A DNA stretch of 64,000 bases from Methylovulum sp. (GTDB lineage: Bacteria > Pseudomonadota > Gammaproteobacteria > Methylococcales > Methylomonadaceae): the NCBI RefSeq assembly GCF_028687615.1, contig NZ_JAQTZU010000007.1:1-64000 (forward strand), read 5' to 3'. The notes beneath the pieces are model-generated. The model did not search any database. It was not told where the DNA came from and worked only from the letters and a program-made list of their open reading frames with translations. The translations under genes were made by a program, and so were the position numbers. Positions 15,371-21,902 of the stretch are shown in pieces; position 1 is the stretch's first letter, and every line of letters begins with the position of its first letter.

Positions 15371-18049
15371 ATGAAGAATAGCCTAATTTCAGAAATTACC
15401 GGACAAAACGATATTGATCCGGCAGAAACCCGGGAATGGATTGAGGCTTTGCAGGCCGTACTGGAGCAAGATGGCAGTGAACGGGCGCATTTTTTGATTG
15501 AACAACTGGTGGCAGTCACCCGCCATTCAGGATTTGACATCCCGTTTAGTGCCAATACCGCGTATCTCAATACCATACCGGTTGAACGGCAAGCACAGTT
15601 TCCTGGTGACGCGACCATAGAACAACGGATCCGTTCTTATGTGCGCTGGAACGCGATGATGATGGTGTTGCGGGCGAACAAACACACCAATGTCGGCGGA
15701 CATATCGCCAGTTTTGCCTCGGCGGCGACGCTTTATGATGTGGGTTACAACCATTTTTGGCACGCCGCTTCCGAACAGCATGGCGGCGATTTGATTTACA
15801 CCCAGGGCCATTTGACACCAGGTGATTATGCCCGCGCGTTTTTGTTGGGCCGCTTCACCCAAGCGCAAATGGATAACTTCCGTCAAGAAGTGCATGGCGA
15901 TGGCTTGTCGTCATATCCCCATCCTTGGCTGATGCAGGATTTTTGGCAATTCCCGACCGTATCTATGGGCTTGGGTCCGATTATGGCGATTTACCAAGCA
16001 CGCTTCATGCGTTATTTGCAAGACCGTGGTTTCGCCGATACCGCAAACCGTAAAGTCTGGAGTTTCCTAGGCGATGGTGAGACGGACGAACCGGAATCGC
16101 TGGGCGCGATAGGCATGGCCGGTCGTGAAAAACTGGACAACCTGATTTTCGTCGTCAACTGTAACCTGCAACGGTTGGATGGCCCGGTACGCGGCAATGG
16201 CAAAATCATCCAGGAGCTGGAAAGCGAATTCCGTGGTGCGGGTTGGAATGTCATTAAAGTGGTTTGGGGGCAGCGTTGGGATATTCTCTTGGCGCGTGAC
16301 AAACAGGGCTTGTTGATCAAACGTATGATGGAGTGCGTGGACGGTGATTTCCAAACCTTCAAGGCCAAAGATGGCGCGTATGTCCGTGAGCATTTCTTTA
16401 ACAGCCCGGAACTGAAAGCGATGGTCGCCGACTGGTCTGACCGCGATATTTGGGAGCTGAACCGTGGCGGACATGATCCTGCCAAAGTTTATGCGGCATT
16501 CCACGCCGCCGTGAACCACCAAGGCCAGCCCACCGTGATTTTGGCGAAAACCATCAAAGGTTACGGCATGGGCGAATCAGGCCAAGCACAAAACATCACC
16601 CACCAACAGAAAAAAATGAGCCCCAGCTCGCTGACGCATTTCCGTGACCGTTACGAATTGCCGGTGACCGACGATGAATTGCATGAACTGCCTTACCTGA
16701 CCTTCCTCGAAGGTTCCAAAGAACTGGAATACATGCGTAAACGCCGCACCGAATTAGGTGGCAATCTGCCGTCACGCCGCAGCAAATCTTACGCGCTGGA
16801 CGTGCCGGTATTGAGCGATTTCAAACCCCTGTTGGAAGCCAGTGGCGAAGGCCGCGAAATTTCGACGACGATGGCGTTCGTGCGCTTGATCAACATTTTG
16901 ACCAAAGACAAAAACATCGGCAAACGTATCGTGCCTATCGTGCCGGATGAATCCCGCACTTTCGGCATGGAAGGCATGTTCCGGCAATTGGGGATATGGT
17001 CGCAAGTGGGCCAGCTTTATACGCCACAAGATGCCAAAGAATTGATGTTCTACAAAGAAGACAAGCACGGGCAGATTTTGCAGGAAGGGATTAACGAAGC
17101 GGGCGGTTTGTGTGATTGGATTGCCGCTGGTACGTCTTACTCCACGCACAACGTGCCGATGATCCCGTTCTTTATTTATTACTCGATGTTTGGTTTCCAA
17201 CGCGTCGGCGATTTGATCTGGGCGGCGGCAGACCAACGTACCCGTGGCTTCCTGATGGGCGGCACGGCGGGACGTACCACGCTGAACGGCGAAGGCTTGC
17301 AGCATGAAGACGGGCATAGCCATATCATGGCGGCGACCGTGCCCAATTGCGTCTCTTACGATCCGACCTACTCCTACGAATTGGCGGTGATTGTCCAAGA
17401 CGGCTTGCGGCGCATGTATGTCGAGCAAGAAGATGTGTTTTATTACATCACCGTGATGAACGAAAACTACGAACATCCGGCCCTGCCCAAAGGGGAAGAA
17501 CAAAACATCCTTAAAGGGATGTACAGTTTCCGTAAAGGGGCGGATAACAAAACCCCGCGTGTGCAATTGTTAGGCTCTGGCACGATTTTCCGCGAAGTTG
17601 AATTCGCCGCCGATTTGTTGCGTGATGATTGGGGCGTTGAAGCGGATTTGTGGAGTTGCCCAAGTTTCACCGAATTGGCCCGCGATGGGCAACTTTGCCA
17701 GCGTTGGAACCGCCTGCACCCGACCGAACCGCCTAAACAAGCCCATGTTGCGCATTGTTTGACAAACGCTGTCGGTCCTATCGTTGCCGCGACTGATTAC
17801 ACCCGTGCCTTTGCCGAGCAAATCCGCTTTTTGATTGCAGCCCCTTATACGGTGTTGGGGACTGATGGTTTTGGGCGTTCCGACACCCGCGAAAACTTGC
17901 GCCGATTCTTTGAAGTGGACCGTTACCATGTGACCGTCGCTGCATTGAAGGCCTTGGCGGACTTAGGCCAATTTGAGCCTGCCAAAGTTGAGGTGGCGAT
18001 TGCCAAATACGGCTTGGCGGCAGATGTTAAAGCACCGTGGCTAATCTAA
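15371..18049 (+). CDS. aceE: Pyruvate dehydrogenase E1 component, homodimeric type
   Basis: Thiamine-diphosphate enzyme that decarboxylates pyruvate and acetylates the lipoyl group of E2. At 892 residues it is the large single-chain gammaproteobacterial type. The ThDP/Mg site GDGETDEPES and NCNLQRLDGPVRGN are clear, with HIASFASAATLYDVGYNHFW near the N-terminus and GTDGFGRSDTRENLRRFFEVD near the C-terminus. AGGAT lies about eight bases before the ATG. It is the first gene of aceE-aceF-lpd, with 15 bases to aceF. No pdhR-type regulator is adjacent. Confidence 0.97.
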   Translation: MKNSLISEITGQNDIDPAETREWIEALQAVLEQDGSERAHFLIEQLVAVTRHSGFDIPFSANTAYLNTIPVERQAQFPGDATIEQRIRSYVRWNAMMMVLRANKHTNVGGHIASFASAATLYDVGYNHFWHAASEQHGGDLIYTQGHLTPGDYARAFLLGRFTQAQMDNFRQEVHGDGLSSYPHPWLMQDFWQFPTVSMGLGPIMAIYQARFMRYLQDRGFADTANRKVWSFLGDGETDEPESLGAIGMAGREKLDNLIFVVNCNLQRLDGPVRGNGKIIQELESEFRGAGWNVIKVVWGQRWDILLARDKQGLLIKRMMECVDGDFQTFKAKDGAYVREHFFNSPELKAMVADWSDRDIWELNRGGHDPAKVYAAFHAAVNHQGQPTVILAKTIKGYGMGESGQAQNITHQQKKMSPSSLTHFRDRYELPVTDDELHELPYLTFLEGSKELEYMRKRRTELGGNLPSRRSKSYALDVPVLSDFKPLLEASGEGREISTTMAFVRLINILTKDKNIGKRIVPIVPDESRTFGMEGMFRQLGIWSQVGQLYTPQDAKELMFYKEDKHGQILQEGINEAGGLCDWIAAGTSYSTHNVPMIPFFIYYSMFGFQRVGDLIWAAADQRTRGFLMGGTAGRTTLNGEGLQHEDGHSHIMAATVPNCVSYDPTYSYELAVIVQDGLRRMYVEQEDVFYYITVMNENYEHPALPKGEEQNILKGMYSFRKGADNKTPRVQLLGSGTIFREVEFAADLLRDDWGVEADLWSCPSFTELARDGQLCQRWNRLHPTEPPKQAHVAHCLTNAVGPIVAATDYTRAFAEQIRFLIAAPYTVLGTDGFGRSDTRENLRRFFEVDRYHVTVAALKALADLGQFEPAKVEVAIAKYGLAADVKAPWLI

Positions 18050-18064
18050 TCCAAGGATAAGAAT

Positions 18065-19441
18065 ATGACCGATAATAATAAAATAACTGGTTTGTGCGAA
18101 ATTAAGGTTCCTGATGTCGGCAACGTCCCGTCCATTGACGTTGTTGAAGTGCTGATTAAAGTCGGTGATGTCATAGCTTTGGAACAAACAGTTGCCACTT
18201 TGGAGACCGACAAAGCCACGATGGAATTGCCATCCAGCGCGTCTGGCACGGTCAAGGAAGTGTTCATCAAAGCGGGTGATAAAGTCACGGAAGGAACCCT
18301 GATTGCCACCGTGTTGACGGAAGATGCAGGGCTGGGCTGCGCCGGTTCCCTACCGGCTGGCGGCATTGCCACCGTCCCTGGCGGTCATAGTGCGGCGAAA
18401 CCGGCAGAAGTGCCCGCTCTTGAAGTTGCCGCGCCGCCAGTGCTTGCAGCAAGCCCGGTGCCAGTTGCCGGACCAGCCACCGCACCGATACCCAAAACCG
18501 TTGCGGTAGCCGCAGAACCATCTGCGCATATCACGGGCGTAAAGGCCCATGCCTCGCCATCAGTGCGTCTGTTCGCGCGGGAATTGGGTGTGGACATCGG
18601 TAAAGTCACGGTCGGTAGTGGACGCAAAGGCCGTATCCTGAAAGAAGATGTGAAGCTGTTTGTCAAAAAAGTCATGGCGGCAGGTTTGCCAAGCACAGGC
18701 GGTGCGGGCATTCCCGCCATCCCTGCTGTCGATTTTACCCAGTTCGGCGGGATTGAAATGCTGAAACTCAGCAAAATCAAACGCCTGACCGGACAGAATA
18801 TGACCCGCGTCTGGCTGAATTTGCCGATGGTGACTTACCACGACGAAGCCGACATCACCGATCTGGAAGCTTTCCGCACCGTGTTGAACGGCGAAAAAGG
18901 CAAGGACGACATTAAAATTACCCCGTTGTTGTTCGTCATCAAGGCTTTGGTTGCCGGAATGCAGCAATTCCCCCATTTCAACGCCTCGCTGTCCAGTGAC
19001 GGTGAAAGCCTGATCCTGAAAAAATATTGCCACATTGGCATTGCCGTCGATACCCCGAATGGTTTGGTCGTCCCCGTCCTGCGAGATGTCGATAAAAAAT
19101 CCATCAACCAATTGGCGGTCGAACTGGCGGAAAAGAGTGCGAAAGCACGGCAGGGTAAATTGATGCCTGCCGATATGCAAGGCGGTTGCATGACCATTTC
19201 CAGTTTGGGCGGCATCGGCGGCACGGCGTTTACACCTATTGTCAACGCGCCGGAAGTGGCGATTTTGGGCATTACCCGCCACAAAATGCAGCCGGTTTGG
19301 AACGGTAAAGAATTCGTCCCACGTCTGATGTTGCCATTGGATTTGACCTACGATCACCGCGTCATCGACGGTGCCGAAGGGGCGCGTTTTATGAACGTGA
19401 TCAAACAAAACCTGAGCGACATCCGCCGCTTGTTGCTTTAA
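18065..19441 (+). CDS. aceF: Dihydrolipoyl acetyltransferase (PDH E2), single lipoyl domain
   Basis: E2 core of the pyruvate dehydrogenase complex, moving acetyl groups to CoA. One lipoyl domain (about 9-85; lipoyl Lys50 in LETDKATME), an Ala/Pro-rich linker, a peripheral subunit-binding domain (SPSVRLFARELGVDIGKV, about 162-198) and the catalytic domain with DHRVIDG (catalytic His431). E. coli AceF has three lipoyl domains; here there is one, giving 458 residues. The linker begins with a palindromic repeat (AGSLPAGGIATVPGGH, residues 93-108) that recurs in lpd. Confidence 0.96.
   Translation: MTDNNKITGLCEIKVPDVGNVPSIDVVEVLIKVGDVIALEQTVATLETDKATMELPSSASGTVKEVFIKAGDKVTEGTLIATVLTEDAGLGCAGSLPAGGIATVPGGHSAAKPAEVPALEVAAPPVLAASPVPVAGPATAPIPKTVAVAAEPSAHITGVKAHASPSVRLFARELGVDIGKVTVGSGRKGRILKEDVKLFVKKVMAAGLPSTGGAGIPAIPAVDFTQFGGIEMLKLSKIKRLTGQNMTRVWLNLPMVTYHDEADITDLEAFRTVLNGEKGKDDIKITPLLFVIKALVAGMQQFPHFNASLSSDGESLILKKYCHIGIAVDTPNGLVVPVLRDVDKKSINQLAVELAEKSAKARQGKLMPADMQGGCMTISSLGGIGGTAFTPIVNAPEVAILGITRHKMQPVWNGKEFVPRLMLPLDLTYDHRVIDGAEGARFMNVIKQNLSDIRRLLL
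18341..18387 (+). repeat. In-frame palindromic repeat within aceF
   Basis: These 47 bases match 20315-20361 in lpd at 43 positions and are read in the same frame. The first 17 bases form a hairpin GCCGGT-TCCCT-ACCGGC. In lpd it reads GCCGAT-TCCCT-ATCGGC: the two changes fall on paired bases and keep the stem. It encodes part of the flexible linker between the lipoyl and subunit-binding domains. Confidence 0.8.
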
Positions 19442-19449
19442 CTGGTAGC

Positions 19450-19519
19450 TTGGGGTGAGGGTACGAACCCCAACGGCGTACCATGAATTGATTGTTGGGG
19501 AGTCTTTCGTCTCCCCAAC
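19450..19519. repeat. Two hairpins between aceF and lpd
   Basis: TTGGGGT/ACCCCAA (19450-19473) and GTTGGGGAG/CTCCCCAAC (19494-19519) form two separate stems of 7 and 9 pairs. Neither is followed by a T-run, so they are more likely intercistronic stability or attenuation structures, or repeat-element remnants, than terminators. Confidence 0.6.
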
Positions 19520-19546
19520 CTACGTTATAAATTCAAGGAAATTATC

Positions 19547-21013
19547 ATGACAGAAACAGTTTTGAATGCAGAAGTCGTCGTCTTGGGCGGCGGCCCAGGC
19601 GGTTACAGTGCCGCGTTCCGTGCGGCGGATTTGGGCAAGCAAGTGGTCTTGGTCGAGCGCGAACCCGTGCTGGGCGGAGTTTGTTTGAATGTCGGTTGCA
19701 TTCCGTCAAAAGCCTTGTTGCACACCGCCTTGATTATCCACGAGACGCAAGAAATGGCGGAACACGGCATTAGCTTCACTAAGCCGGAACTGGATTTGGA
19801 CAAAATCCGCTCTTGGAAAGAAAGCGTCACCAAAACCTTGAACGGTGGCCTGTCCGGCCTTGCCAAACAACGCCAAGTCACCGTGCTGCATGGCGTTGGG
19901 CAATTTACTTCTGCCAATAGCTTGTCGGTGCAAGGGGAAACGGAAACCACCGTGGTCAACTTCCAAAACGCGATCATCGCCGCCGGTTCCCAACCCACCA
20001 AGATTCCGACTTTTCCGAACGACGACCCGCGCTTGTGGGATTCCACCGACGCGCTGGCCTTAAGCCAAATCCCGAAAAAATTGCTCATTGTCGGTGGCGG
20101 TATTATCGGCTTGGAAATGGCGACGGTTTACCATGCCTTCGGTTCAGAAATCAGCGTCGTGGAATTGATGGACCAAATCATTCCCGGTTGTGACAAGGAT
20201 TTGATCACTCCGCTGTTCCGCCGTATCAAAAAACAGTACAAAGATATATGGCTGGAAACCCGCGTCACCGCGATTGAAGCGCAAGAGGATGGCTTGAAGG
20301 TTTCCTTTGACCGCGCCGATTCCCTATCGGCTGGCGGCATTCCCACCGTCCCTGGTGGTCAAGGTAAAGGCGCGCCGGAATCGGAATTATTTGATGCCGT
20401 GCTAGTTGCCGTAGGCCGCCGACCCAACGGCAAGCTGATTGCCGCCGACCTGGCGGGTGTCAACGTCAACGAACAGGGCTTTATCCCCGTTGACAAGCAA
20501 CAACGGACTAATGTGCCGCATATCTTCGCCATTGGCGATATTGTTGGCAACCCGATGCTGGCGCATAAAGCAGTTCATGAAGGTAAAGTCGCCGCCGAAG
20601 TCATCGCCGGGCATAAAGCCGGATTTGATGCGTTGACCATCCCGTCGGTCGCTTACACCGACCCTGAAATTGCTTGGATGGGCTTGACTGAAACCTGCGC
20701 CAAACAGCAAGGCATAGCCTATGACAAAGCCGCGTTCCCGTGGGCGGCTAGTGGCCGTTCCTTAAGCATGGGCCGTAAAGAAGGCATCACCAAGATCCTG
20801 TGTGAGAAAGAAACCGGCAGGATTCTGGGGGCGGGCATGGTCGGCCCGAATGCGGGCGAGTTGATTGCTGAAGCGGTGTTGGCCTTGGAAATGGGCGCGG
20901 ACGCGGAAGACATCAGCTTGACTATCCATCCGCATCCGACTTTATCTGAAACTTTTGCGTTCGCGGCGGAGATGATTACCGGCACGATTACTGATCTTTA
21001 CATCAAGAAATAA
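19547..21013 (+). CDS. lpd: Dihydrolipoyl dehydrogenase (E3)
   Basis: FAD enzyme that reoxidises dihydrolipoyl groups with NAD. FAD-binding VVLGGGPGGYSAAFRAADLG, redox disulfide GGVCLNVGC (Cys46, Cys51), NAD motif VGGGIIGLEMA, second FAD motif AIGDIVGNPMLAHKA and the C-terminal catalytic HPHPTLSE are all intact. Against the E. coli sequence there is an extra stretch of about a dozen residues (near 257-275, DSLSAGGIPTVPGGQGKGAP) just before FDAVLVAVGRRPNG, which is the palindromic repeat also found in aceF. Third gene of the PDH operon; length 488. Confidence 0.97.
   Translation: MTETVLNAEVVVLGGGPGGYSAAFRAADLGKQVVLVEREPVLGGVCLNVGCIPSKALLHTALIIHETQEMAEHGISFTKPELDLDKIRSWKESVTKTLNGGLSGLAKQRQVTVLHGVGQFTSANSLSVQGETETTVVNFQNAIIAAGSQPTKIPTFPNDDPRLWDSTDALALSQIPKKLLIVGGGIIGLEMATVYHAFGSEISVVELMDQIIPGCDKDLITPLFRRIKKQYKDIWLETRVTAIEAQEDGLKVSFDRADSLSAGGIPTVPGGQGKGAPESELFDAVLVAVGRRPNGKLIAADLAGVNVNEQGFIPVDKQQRTNVPHIFAIGDIVGNPMLAHKAVHEGKVAAEVIAGHKAGFDALTIPSVAYTDPEIAWMGLTETCAKQQGIAYDKAAFPWAASGRSLSMGRKEGITKILCEKETGRILGAGMVGPNAGELIAEAVLALEMGADAEDISLTIHPHPTLSETFAFAAEMITGTITDLYIKK
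20315..20361 (+). repeat. In-frame palindromic repeat within lpd
   Basis: Partner of the aceF repeat: same frame, 43 of 47 bases identical, encoding ADSLSAGGIPTVPGGQ. The hairpin stem GCCGAT/ATCGGC carries a compensated base pair relative to aceF. A second small stem, CCACC/GGTGG, lies in the right half. The insertion falls in a surface loop region ahead of a conserved strand, judging from alignment with the family by eye. Confidence 0.8.
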
Positions 21014-21038
21014 CCGTTACGGAACATTTTTTTAAACA

Positions 21039-21902
21039 ATGAAGCGCAAACTTATCGCCTTTGATTGGGCCATCAAACGTCTGTTACGCAGCAAAGCTAA
21101 TTTTGGCATTCTCGAAGGCTTTTTAAGTGAATTGCTAAAAGAAGACATTTTTATTTTGGAGGTGTTGGAAAGCGAAAGCAATCAAGATTATCAACGCGAC
21201 AAGTTCAGCCGCGTTGATCTCAAAGTTCGCAACAGCAACGGCGAAACCATCATTATCGAAATCCAGTACGATAGGGAGTTTGACTATCTGCAACGCATTT
21301 TCTACGCGGCTTCCAAAGCCGCGCTGGAATCGATGCAGGCGGGTAGCGAGTATGCCGACATCACCAAAGTCATTTCCGTCAACATCCTCTATTTTGATTT
21401 GGGGATAGGCAAAGATTATCTCTATAAAGGCAGCCCCCGCTTCATTGGTGTGCATGGGCATGACTTGCTCCAATTGAACGACAAACAAAAAAAGTTGTTC
21501 CAAAAAAACACCGTCGAGGCTCTGTATCCCGAATATTATTTGATTAAAATAAATAGTTTCAATGATATTGCCAAAGACACCTTGGATGAATGGATTTATT
21601 TCCTGAAAAATGAAGAAATAAAGCCGGATTTCACCGCCAAGGGCTTAAAAGAGGCGGAAGAAAAACTTAGCCTCATGAAATTGCCGCCAGAAGAACAGGC
21701 CGCGTATGAGCGTTATCAGGACGATTTGCATTATCAGGCCAGCATGTTCCAATCCACGTTTGTTGACGGCTATCTCGAAGCCACCCAAGATATAGCTTTG
21801 AACTTGTTGAAAAAAGGTACGTCCATTGGGGTTGTGTCAGAAGTGACGGGCTGGTCTGCAACCGAACTGAATGCTCTCGCCCTTAAGCCTGCCGACCAGT
21901 GA
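21039..21902 (+). CDS. Rpn/PD-(D/E)XK family nuclease-like protein
   Basis: A 287-residue protein of the Rpn (recombination-promoting nuclease, formerly putative transposase) family. The nuclease core is visible: FDWAIKRLLRSKANFGILEGFLSELL, then RVDLKVRNSNGETIIIEIQYDRE, giving the D...E-x-Q pattern of the family, and YYLIKINSFNDIAKDTLDEWIYFLKN. The C-terminus has the usual helical tail (GYLEATQDIALNLLKKG). In E. coli these proteins are DNA endonucleases linked to RecA-independent recombination. It sits between lpd and the polysaccharide region. No terminal repeats surround it. Confidence 0.8.
   Translation: MKRKLIAFDWAIKRLLRSKANFGILEGFLSELLKEDIFILEVLESESNQDYQRDKFSRVDLKVRNSNGETIIIEIQYDREFDYLQRIFYAASKAALESMQAGSEYADITKVISVNILYFDLGIGKDYLYKGSPRFIGVHGHDLLQLNDKQKKLFQKNTVEALYPEYYLIKINSFNDIAKDTLDEWIYFLKNEEIKPDFTAKGLKEAEEKLSLMKLPPEEQAAYERYQDDLHYQASMFQSTFVDGYLEATQDIALNLLKKGTSIGVVSEVTGWSATELNALALKPADQ

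What the first reader, a model, noticed from the sequence alone, without database searches (positions are those of the whole stretch)
18341..20361. Palindromic repeat in the same reading frame of aceF and lpd, with compensated stem changes
47-base copies (43 identical) encode AGSLPAGGIATVPGG in the AceF linker and ADSLSAGGIPTVPGG in Lpd. The hairpins GCCGGT/ACCGGC and GCCGAT/ATCGGC differ at a base pair that changed on both sides. The lpd copy is extra relative to the family. This resembles protein-coding palindromic elements described in Rickettsia, but in a PDH operon. It may affect RNA folding or add a flexible loop to both partners.
Basis: partly seen in the sequence, partly recalled or inferred. 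Interest (0 to 1): 0.85.

Follow-up and report, generated by a model that had tools for sequence, protein, structure and literature searches.

The report
In-frame mobile palindromes in methanotroph genes
A 51-base DNA element that folds into two hairpins has repeatedly inserted itself, without breaking the reading frame, into core genes of methane-eating bacteria, adding 17-amino-acid stretches to enzymes such as pyruvate dehydrogenase and valyl-tRNA synthetase.

Summary
The aceF and lpd repeats are two copies of a dispersed 51-nt, two-hairpin element. The window's genome (a Methylococcaceae methanotroph) holds 18 A/B-type copies at 12 sites, all in ORFs. Related copies occur in 70 of 201 sampled genomes of the order. 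Units can be tandem (2-4). 108 of 114 A/B sites lie in an ORF of at least 150 aa; hosts include Lpd, AceF, AceE, ValS, GatB, AcnB, PolA and RNase R. The lpd insert needs at least 6 gains or losses among 60 lpd genes; the aceF insert was seen only in this genome, and its nearest matches are lpd copies. Stem changes are compensated, but wobble pairs are not enriched on the mRNA strand. 'Always one frame' is wrong: five of six frames occur, with strong bias. No REP transposase was tied to it. Verdict: a new variant of the Rickettsia-type protein-coding palindrome / intragenic REP kind, in non-endosymbiont bacteria. The mobilising enzyme is unknown; an IS200/IS605-like single-strand mechanism is my guess.

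The parts
15371..18049 (+). aceE (PDH E1), no element here; carries the element in some Methylobacter (L024, two units; L274, one unit)
   Evidence: TIGR00759 1516 bits; insert comparison; no further match in the window at E<=1
18065..19441 (+). aceF (PDH E2), host gene of one copy, in the linker after the lipoyl domain
   Evidence: TIGR01348 541 bits, just under the family cut-off of 552; ORF; alignment
18335..18385 (+). 51-nt element copy in aceF; read as CAGSLPAGGIATVPGG
   Evidence: CM R2 70.4 bits, E 3.0e-10; not in 50 readable relatives
18337..18363 (+). hairpin 1 of the aceF copy (inner stem 18341-18346 / 18352-18357, loop TCCCT, 2-nt bulge on the 3' side)
   Evidence: DNA fold; covariation
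18370..18383 (+). hairpin 2 of the aceF copy
   Evidence: model columns 36-49; DNA fold
19547..21013 (+). lpd (PDH E3), host gene of the second copy
   Evidence: TIGR01350 495 bits
20309..20359 (+). 51-nt element copy in lpd; read as DRADSLSAGGIPTVPGG
   Evidence: CM R2 71.9 bits, E 1.5e-10; insert/empty comparison; at least 6 gains or losses
20311..20337 (+). hairpin 1 of the lpd copy (outer CCGC/GCGG, inner GCCGAT/ATCGGC, loop TCCCT, bulge TG)
   Evidence: DNA fold z -3.71 for the unit; covariation
20344..20357 (+). hairpin 2 of the lpd copy (CCACC/GGTGG)
   Evidence: model columns 36-49; DNA fold

Best explanation
The two repeats are copies of a non-autonomous mobile element of Methylococcales methanotrophs: a 51-nt unit made of two hairpins (stem 1 of about 10 bp with a 2-nt bulge, stem 2 of about 5 bp, mostly with TCCC in the loop). 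SHOWN: it is dispersed, in 1-4 tandem units of 51 nt; type-A units are followed by A (then mostly A or T) at the host junction; at the aceE site it lies in the empty sequence with no duplication and no deletion; the unit is a multiple of 3 and the type-A consensus is open in all six frames, so an insertion adds 17 aa without a stop; most sites found are inside genes. INFERRED: copies spread through a single-stranded hairpin intermediate, cut and joined next to a short A-rich target by an enzyme acting in trans, most like the Y1 (IS200/IS605-type) mechanism, a new unit going in beside an old one to make tandems. Insertions survive where the 17-residue peptide is a tolerated surface loop or linker, which would explain the strong bias to Ala/Gly/Ser/Pro-rich frames. 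Compensated stem changes come from constraint on DNA folding, hairpin-templated correction or replacement by another copy, rather than from a role of the fold in host mRNA. The aceF copy most likely descends from the lpd copy or from a common source in this lineage.
For: Dispersal: (reversed-pattern control 0 in the 5 genomes). Covariation: 11 of 16 pairs with changes on both sides, 93.2% of cells paired against 28-46% for slid versions. Empty sites: lpd, ValS N- and C-site, aceE L022 empty against L024 filled. Recurrence: at least 6 changes for full-length lpd inserts, 6-6 over bootstrap trees. 3' flank A in 67 of 69 type-A units counted as terminal. Intragenic: 108 of 114 A/B sites; Pfam hit for 25 of 28 host ORFs submitted. 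Frame bias S0 11, S1 10, S2 3, R0 23, R1 3, R2 0, chi-square p 5e-8. No mRNA-strand wobble excess. aceF copy nearest to the lpd copies of the own genome and of G012, 45 of 49.
Against: No mobilising enzyme identified: 50 Y1 loci searched (20, 30), none bracketed by elements; G002 and G015 carry elements (4 and 1 matches) but no Y1_Tnp hit (G015 is 76% complete). The A flank was scored only on 93 type-A copies ending in GAT; the window's own two copies end GGT followed by C, so they do not show it, and it might be an element end lost at tandem junctions. No transposition was observed; the lpd pattern could be losses or recombination of the gene. Frame bias could reflect a phase-dependent target. 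The single-copy folds of the aceF unit (z -1.70) and of one type-A unit (z -1.35) are not exceptional.
Confidence: 0.78

Rival explanations
1. REP/RAYT elements: the repeats are an intragenic branch of a classical REP family moved by a dedicated REP-associated tyrosine transposase.
For: Size, hairpins, multicopy, and known intragenic REPs (PMC3733652, passages and section 15 read). A cousin (type C) is mostly outside genes in the loci examined. Y1_Tnp genes occur in 21 of 26 genomes, own included.
Against: No conserved GTAG/GTGG head in the copies listed; two different hairpins per unit; no Y1 gene bracketed by elements in 50 loci; most A/B sites found are genic, not extragenic.
Confidence: 0.25
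2. Selected RNA hairpins: the insert is kept because its fold regulates the host mRNA (stability, translation).
For: Strong two-sided stem changes.
Against: Both orientations are common (49 sense, 29 antisense of 97 matches with a host ORF assigned by length). Helix-1 cells read on the host's mRNA strand: 23 wobble against 40 A-C mismatches. No Rfam match in 18000-21100. Unrelated hosts and frequent absence in close relatives.
Confidence: 0.06
3. One ancient insertion per site, then loss in most lineages; no recent mobility.
For: The same sites recur in several species (lpd, ValS N, heptosyltransferase, Mur ligase, RNase R); degraded remnants exist (L021, L082; G011).
Against: aceF and ValS C-site inserts seen only in the window's genome; close lpd sisters differ in presence (L030/L046); the aceF copy is closest to lpd copies.
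Confidence: 0.17
4. The insert is removed or skipped after transcription (mini-intron, or ribosome bypass as in mitochondrial byps, the latter recalled), so in-frame openness is incidental.
For: Hairpin-rich inserts in core genes at precise sites; conserved loops with variable stems.
Against: Intragenic A/B units stay multiples of 3 and stop-free in the host frame, and the frames used are biased, which removal would not require.
Confidence: 0.04
5. aceF and lpd became alike by gene conversion rather than insertion.
For: 92% identity between neighbouring genes.
Against: Similarity ends with the unit, flanks are unrelated, and many other copies exist.
Confidence: 0.03

Closest known systems
Rickettsia (RPE) and Wolbachia protein-coding palindromic elements (Ogata et al. 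2000, 2002, 2005; known here through passages of PMC2229807)
   Same: Palindromic repeats inserted in frame in conserved protein genes, also found outside genes, with neutral or slightly detrimental effects proposed.
   Different: RPE: 105-146 bp, long stem-loops with terminal inverted repeats, obligate intracellular hosts. Here: 51 nt, two short hairpins, tandem units, methanotrophs, A flank after type-A units, freely varying stems.
Intragenic REPs (GTAG- and CGTC-tagged; Di Nocera et al. 2013, PMC3733652, passages and section 15)
   Same: Small palindromes inside ORFs of repair, tRNA-synthetase and other genes, often as dimers or groups, encoding 20-30 aa.
   Different: No conserved GTAG or CGTC tag recognised; sites found are mainly genic; 'Methylo' has 0 hits in that paper's main text.
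IS200/IS605 elements and their non-autonomous derivatives (passages of PMC2817692; details recalled)
   Same: Hairpin ends, no larger target-site duplication, fixed short flank (recalled).
   Different: No linked Y1 transposase; 51 nt only; membership not shown.
Coding palindromes of nematomorph mitochondria (PMC6649704, start of abstract in a search listing only)
   Same: Inverted repeats inside protein-coding genes.
   Different: Perfect inverted repeats of up to 284 bp in animal mitochondria; I did not read further.

Membership tests
Protein-coding palindromic elements (RPE-like kind) | Palindromic repeat dispersed in many unrelated ORFs | tested here: met
   67 host-site clusters; Pfam hit for 25 of 28 host ORFs
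Protein-coding palindromic elements (RPE-like kind) | Inserted in frame, absent from orthologues | tested here: met
   lpd 74 of 80 empty; ValS; aceF 50 of 50 readable empty; aceE
Protein-coding palindromic elements (RPE-like kind) | Translated into the mature protein | not testable with these tools
   Needs proteomics
Rickettsia RPE families proper | 105-146 bp with terminal inverted repeats of about 12 bp (as given in PMC2229807) | tested here: not met
   51-nt unit, two separate hairpins
REP (RAYT-associated) | Conserved GT(A/G)G head next to the palindrome | tested here: not met
   No such invariant head in the alignment or the copies listed; GTAG occurs in the loop of some type-B copies on the other strand only
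REP (RAYT-associated) | RAYT gene flanked by two inverted copies | tested here: not met
   0 of 50 Y1_Tnp loci; several loci are cut short by contig ends, and 12 of the 42 Y1 places had no locus
REP (RAYT-associated) | Mostly extragenic | tested here: not met
   108 of 114 A/B sites in ORFs of at least 150 aa
IS200/IS605-derived MITE | No target-site duplication, fixed short flank on one side | tested here: inconclusive
   aceE site clean; A flank in 67 of 69 type-A units but not at the window's two copies
IS200/IS605-derived MITE | Shares ends with an autonomous element encoding TnpA | tested here: inconclusive
   No Y1 gene of the 50 loci is bracketed by it; not all Y1 genes and no other transposase types were searched

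The most novel reading that the evidence does not exclude
A still-active hairpin transposon adapted to life inside genes: 51 nt, no stop in any of six frames (type A), inserted cleanly before A-rich codons and able to stack in tandem, so that it acts as a natural 17-residue linker generator that keeps testing loops in core enzymes (PDH subunits E1, E2 and E3 in different species, ValS, PolA, RNase R) of methanotrophs, while a slightly shorter cousin whose length would shift the frame is mostly found outside genes.
Probability: 0.35. Interest if true: 0.8.

Novelty: new variant of a known kind. Interest (0 to 1): 0.62.

Why it matters
Protein-coding palindromes are known best from Rickettsia and Wolbachia, where they can be put down to relaxed selection in obligate intracellular life (my reading). 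A family with dozens of in-frame sites in methanotrophs, one of them a cultured species (Methylobacter tundripaludum SV96, 20 type-A pattern matches), makes the question testable: how they move, why they sit in genes, and what 17-aa insertions do to essential enzymes. Sites that differ between close relatives give natural with/without pairs of Lpd, ValS and AceE.

Tried and rejected
Rejected: an mRNA-folding role (wobble test); RAYT association; an Rfam family (none in 18000-21100); a plasmid or phage reservoir (no match with one type-A copy); gene conversion.

Weak points of my own counts. Notebook entry 3 calls one host 'HemA'; Pfam shows Fer2/NADH-G-type domains instead. In one search the frame of L124 (R0) is wrong: that site lies in a 518-aa ORF read in frame S0; L290:1214 and L161 (R1) have uncertain hosts; L260, L284 and L289 were merged into one cluster although L289 looks different; several type-B copies were typed as A. 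The 114 sites leave out 15 type-C sites and 5 duplicates that I chose by hand, and repeat orthologous sites. The flank count covers 93 copies that matched an end pattern and counts two copies twice (L018/L120, L041/L259). The first tree missed the G001 insert; one search corrects it. G012's aceF linker could not be read by my pattern in L299, though no element matched there. The type-C count (10 of 30 in ORFs of at least 150 aa; 30 of 57 matches examined) includes four copies in one transposase-like gene where the insert looks out of frame, one type-B copy and one doubtful match. PDH genes are over-represented in my sample because loci were fetched around lpd. One search scored at most 150 candidates per genome and at most 27, so copy numbers are lower bounds. 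E-values of models R1 and R2 are rough. Ogata 2002 is not held and a search on Wolbachia palindromes failed, so RPE facts come from passages of PMC2229807.

Print: the listings (top rows only) and the term look-ups showed no description of these elements in Methylococcales; the library holds open-licence papers only.

Full report
OBSERVATION. The 49-nt repeat is real (18339-18387 / 20313-20361, 92%) and lies in the same frame of aceF and lpd. Querying the genome with the aceF copy returns the lpd copy at E=6.9e-14 and six weaker copies. The window is part of contig C19 of a 3.49-Mb genome whose nearest named lpd relatives are two Methylovulum MAGs (91% and 86%).

ANATOMY. Copies from the window, its genome and relatives align as a 51-nt unit with two hairpins. 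On 23 distinct copies, 93.2% of paired cells are standard pairs (28-46% when the partner strand is slid), 11 of 16 pairs show changes on both sides, and the covariation score exceeds all 500 shuffles (that alignment was fitted to a model of 13 of these pairs, which leans towards the structure). As single-stranded DNA the lpd unit folds well below its shuffles (z -3.71), the aceF unit less so (z -1.70), one type-A unit not clearly (z -1.35), one type-B unit strongly (z -4.57). Period 51 appears in tandem arrays: 4 units in a molybdopterin-oxidoreductase gene, 3+2 units in ValS of the window's genome and 4 in ValS of G009, 2 units in Mur-ligase and M3-peptidase genes.

CENSUS. Own genome: 21 matches at E<=1 with model R1, 24 at E<=10 with R2. 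Of these, 18 copies at 12 sites are of types A/B, all 12 sites in ORFs of 203-943 aa; five of the other matches are type C. 11 of 26 genomes (own included) match at E<=0.01, all 11 among the 16 genomes of the window's genus, 0 of 10 from other families. In a sample of 201 genomes of the order 70 match, in 19 of 48 genera; only up to 27 candidates per genome were scored there, so the counts of 20-28 in genus g11 are lower bounds. Genome G126 of that genus is M. tundripaludum SV96 (same places as the genome of L041). A 24-nt type-A pattern with up to 2 mismatches finds 20 copies in SV96, 61 in G156, 24 in the M. oryzae genome and 1 in the Methylovulum MAG, with 0 for the reversed pattern.

HOST GENES. 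25 of 28 host ORFs submitted had Pfam hits: helicase/DUF3418, U32 peptidase, TonB receptor, aconitase B, CcmH, Fer2/NADH-G, squalene-hopene cyclase, heptosyltransferase; RNase-R-type RNB, DNA polymerase I, type II secretion ATPase, helicase C, RapA, Mur ligase, histidine kinase, M3 peptidase; MerR regulator, AcrB-type transporter, HlyD-type protein, PLP enzyme, SRAP, PDH E1, GatB, molybdopterin oxidoreductase. No hit: L133, L161, L174. Leaving out type C and duplicates, 108 of 114 sites lie in a stop-to-stop ORF of at least 150 aa; 84.7% of window positions do so. The sites are not independent, because some recur across species. So the elements are not kept out of genes as small repeats usually are.

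EMPTY SITES AND HISTORY. Lpd: full insert in 4 of 80 relatives, shortened in 2, none in 74. On a tree of 60 lpd genes with sparse (insert) columns removed, 8 full-length inserts need at least 6 gains or losses, 6-6 over bootstrap trees; 7 if the two remnants count. ValS: the N-site is occupied in 6 of the 12 genomes readable by my pattern among 26 (G000 3 units, G001 2, G009 4, G012 2, G008 2, G011 a remnant), the C-site in 1 of 23 (the window's genome); a further genome, G156, has the N-site insert. AceF: the window only, against 50 readable relatives. The aceF copy is nearest to the lpd copies of its own genome and of G012 (45 of 49). At aceE, empty L022 and filled L024 differ by exactly two units with no lost or duplicated base, apart from one substitution nearby.

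JUNCTIONS. Scored on 93 type-A copies with a clear GAT end: of 69 counted as terminal, the next base is A in 67; the other two (L156, L300) are one tandem copy seen in two loci. The second base is A in 44 and T in 18. Within arrays the next base is the start of the next unit. A new unit therefore appears to enter between an old unit and the A. The window's own copies end GGT followed by C and do not show this. Hairpins, lack of duplication and the flank recall IS200/IS605 transposition (passages of PMC2817692; details recalled). This is inference: 20 Y1_Tnp loci in the window's genus hold no element; 30 in Methylobacter (two of them pieces of one gene) hold 3 convincing copies, none bracketing the gene.

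FRAMES. Over 50 type-A host-site clusters the frames are S0 11, S1 10, S2 3, R0 23, R1 3, R2 0 (chi-square p 5e-8; some assignments are doubtful, see Tried and rejected). The frames most used give IARDGVYAASQSGTGAA, RRASSRLACGIHTIPGD and AAPVPDWLAAYTPSLAI; the unused one gives RQGWCVCRKPVGNWRG. Selection on the peptide is the simplest reading; a phase effect of the target is not excluded. In the E3 model the insert is a low-confidence stretch (260-273, pLDDT <50) between strands 249-256 and 279-282; five other segments are also under 50 and the mean pLDDT is only 74.7 (30 sequences), so the model says little more than that the insert is not predicted to be ordered.

WHY STEMS COVARY. Helix-1 cells of copies in genes: element sense to the gene 13 G-U and 26 A-C; antisense 14 G-U and 10 A-C (96 distinct rows, host assigned by an ORF of at least 225 aa). 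Read on the mRNA strand this is 23 wobble against 40 A-C. RNA selection should favour wobble; it does not. DNA-level constraint, hairpin-templated repair or replacement by another copy fit better; I cannot separate these.

OUTSIDE GENES. A related type C (pattern matches: 36 in SV96, 14 in G156, 6 in the window's genome, 1 in G010) is mostly extragenic: 10 of 30 examined loci have a covering ORF of at least 150 aa, four of these in copies of one transposase-like gene where the insert looks out of frame (its length of about 49 nt was read by eye and the IS3-like label is recalled).

COMPARISON. The kind is known: RPE in Rickettsia (passages of PMC2229807) and intragenic REPs (PMC3733652, passages and section 15). 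The size, double hairpin, tandem habit, hosts and taxon differ, and the REP-defining features tested here were not met. Hence a new variant of a known kind.

Noticed in passing
L305:2016-2073 and L328:796-853: A type-B-like element sits in the centre of a second, longer inverted repeat (GACCTTCCAGGTTTT...AAAACCTGGAAGGTC) in Methylobacter genomes, just 5' of the A-run.
   Followed up: partly
L151, L152, L153, L154 (G000:C25, C42, C12, C8): Four copies of one transposase-like gene in the window's genome carry a type C element that looks out of frame, so the copies probably spread after the insertion.
   Followed up: no
L183, L187: Two Y1_Tnp genes in the window's genus lie between their own inverted repeats containing GGGGTCAG, unrelated to the element.
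   Followed up: partly
L261 and L279 (995-aa ORF): A 995-aa gene carries two elements in opposite orientations at the same two sites in two Methylobacter genomes, in the rare frames S2 and R1; probably glnE (recalled, no family search run).
   Followed up: no
window 21039-21902: A 287-aa ORF after lpd looks like a Rpn/PD-(D/E)XK-type nuclease (recalled from its sequence, no search run).
   Followed up: no
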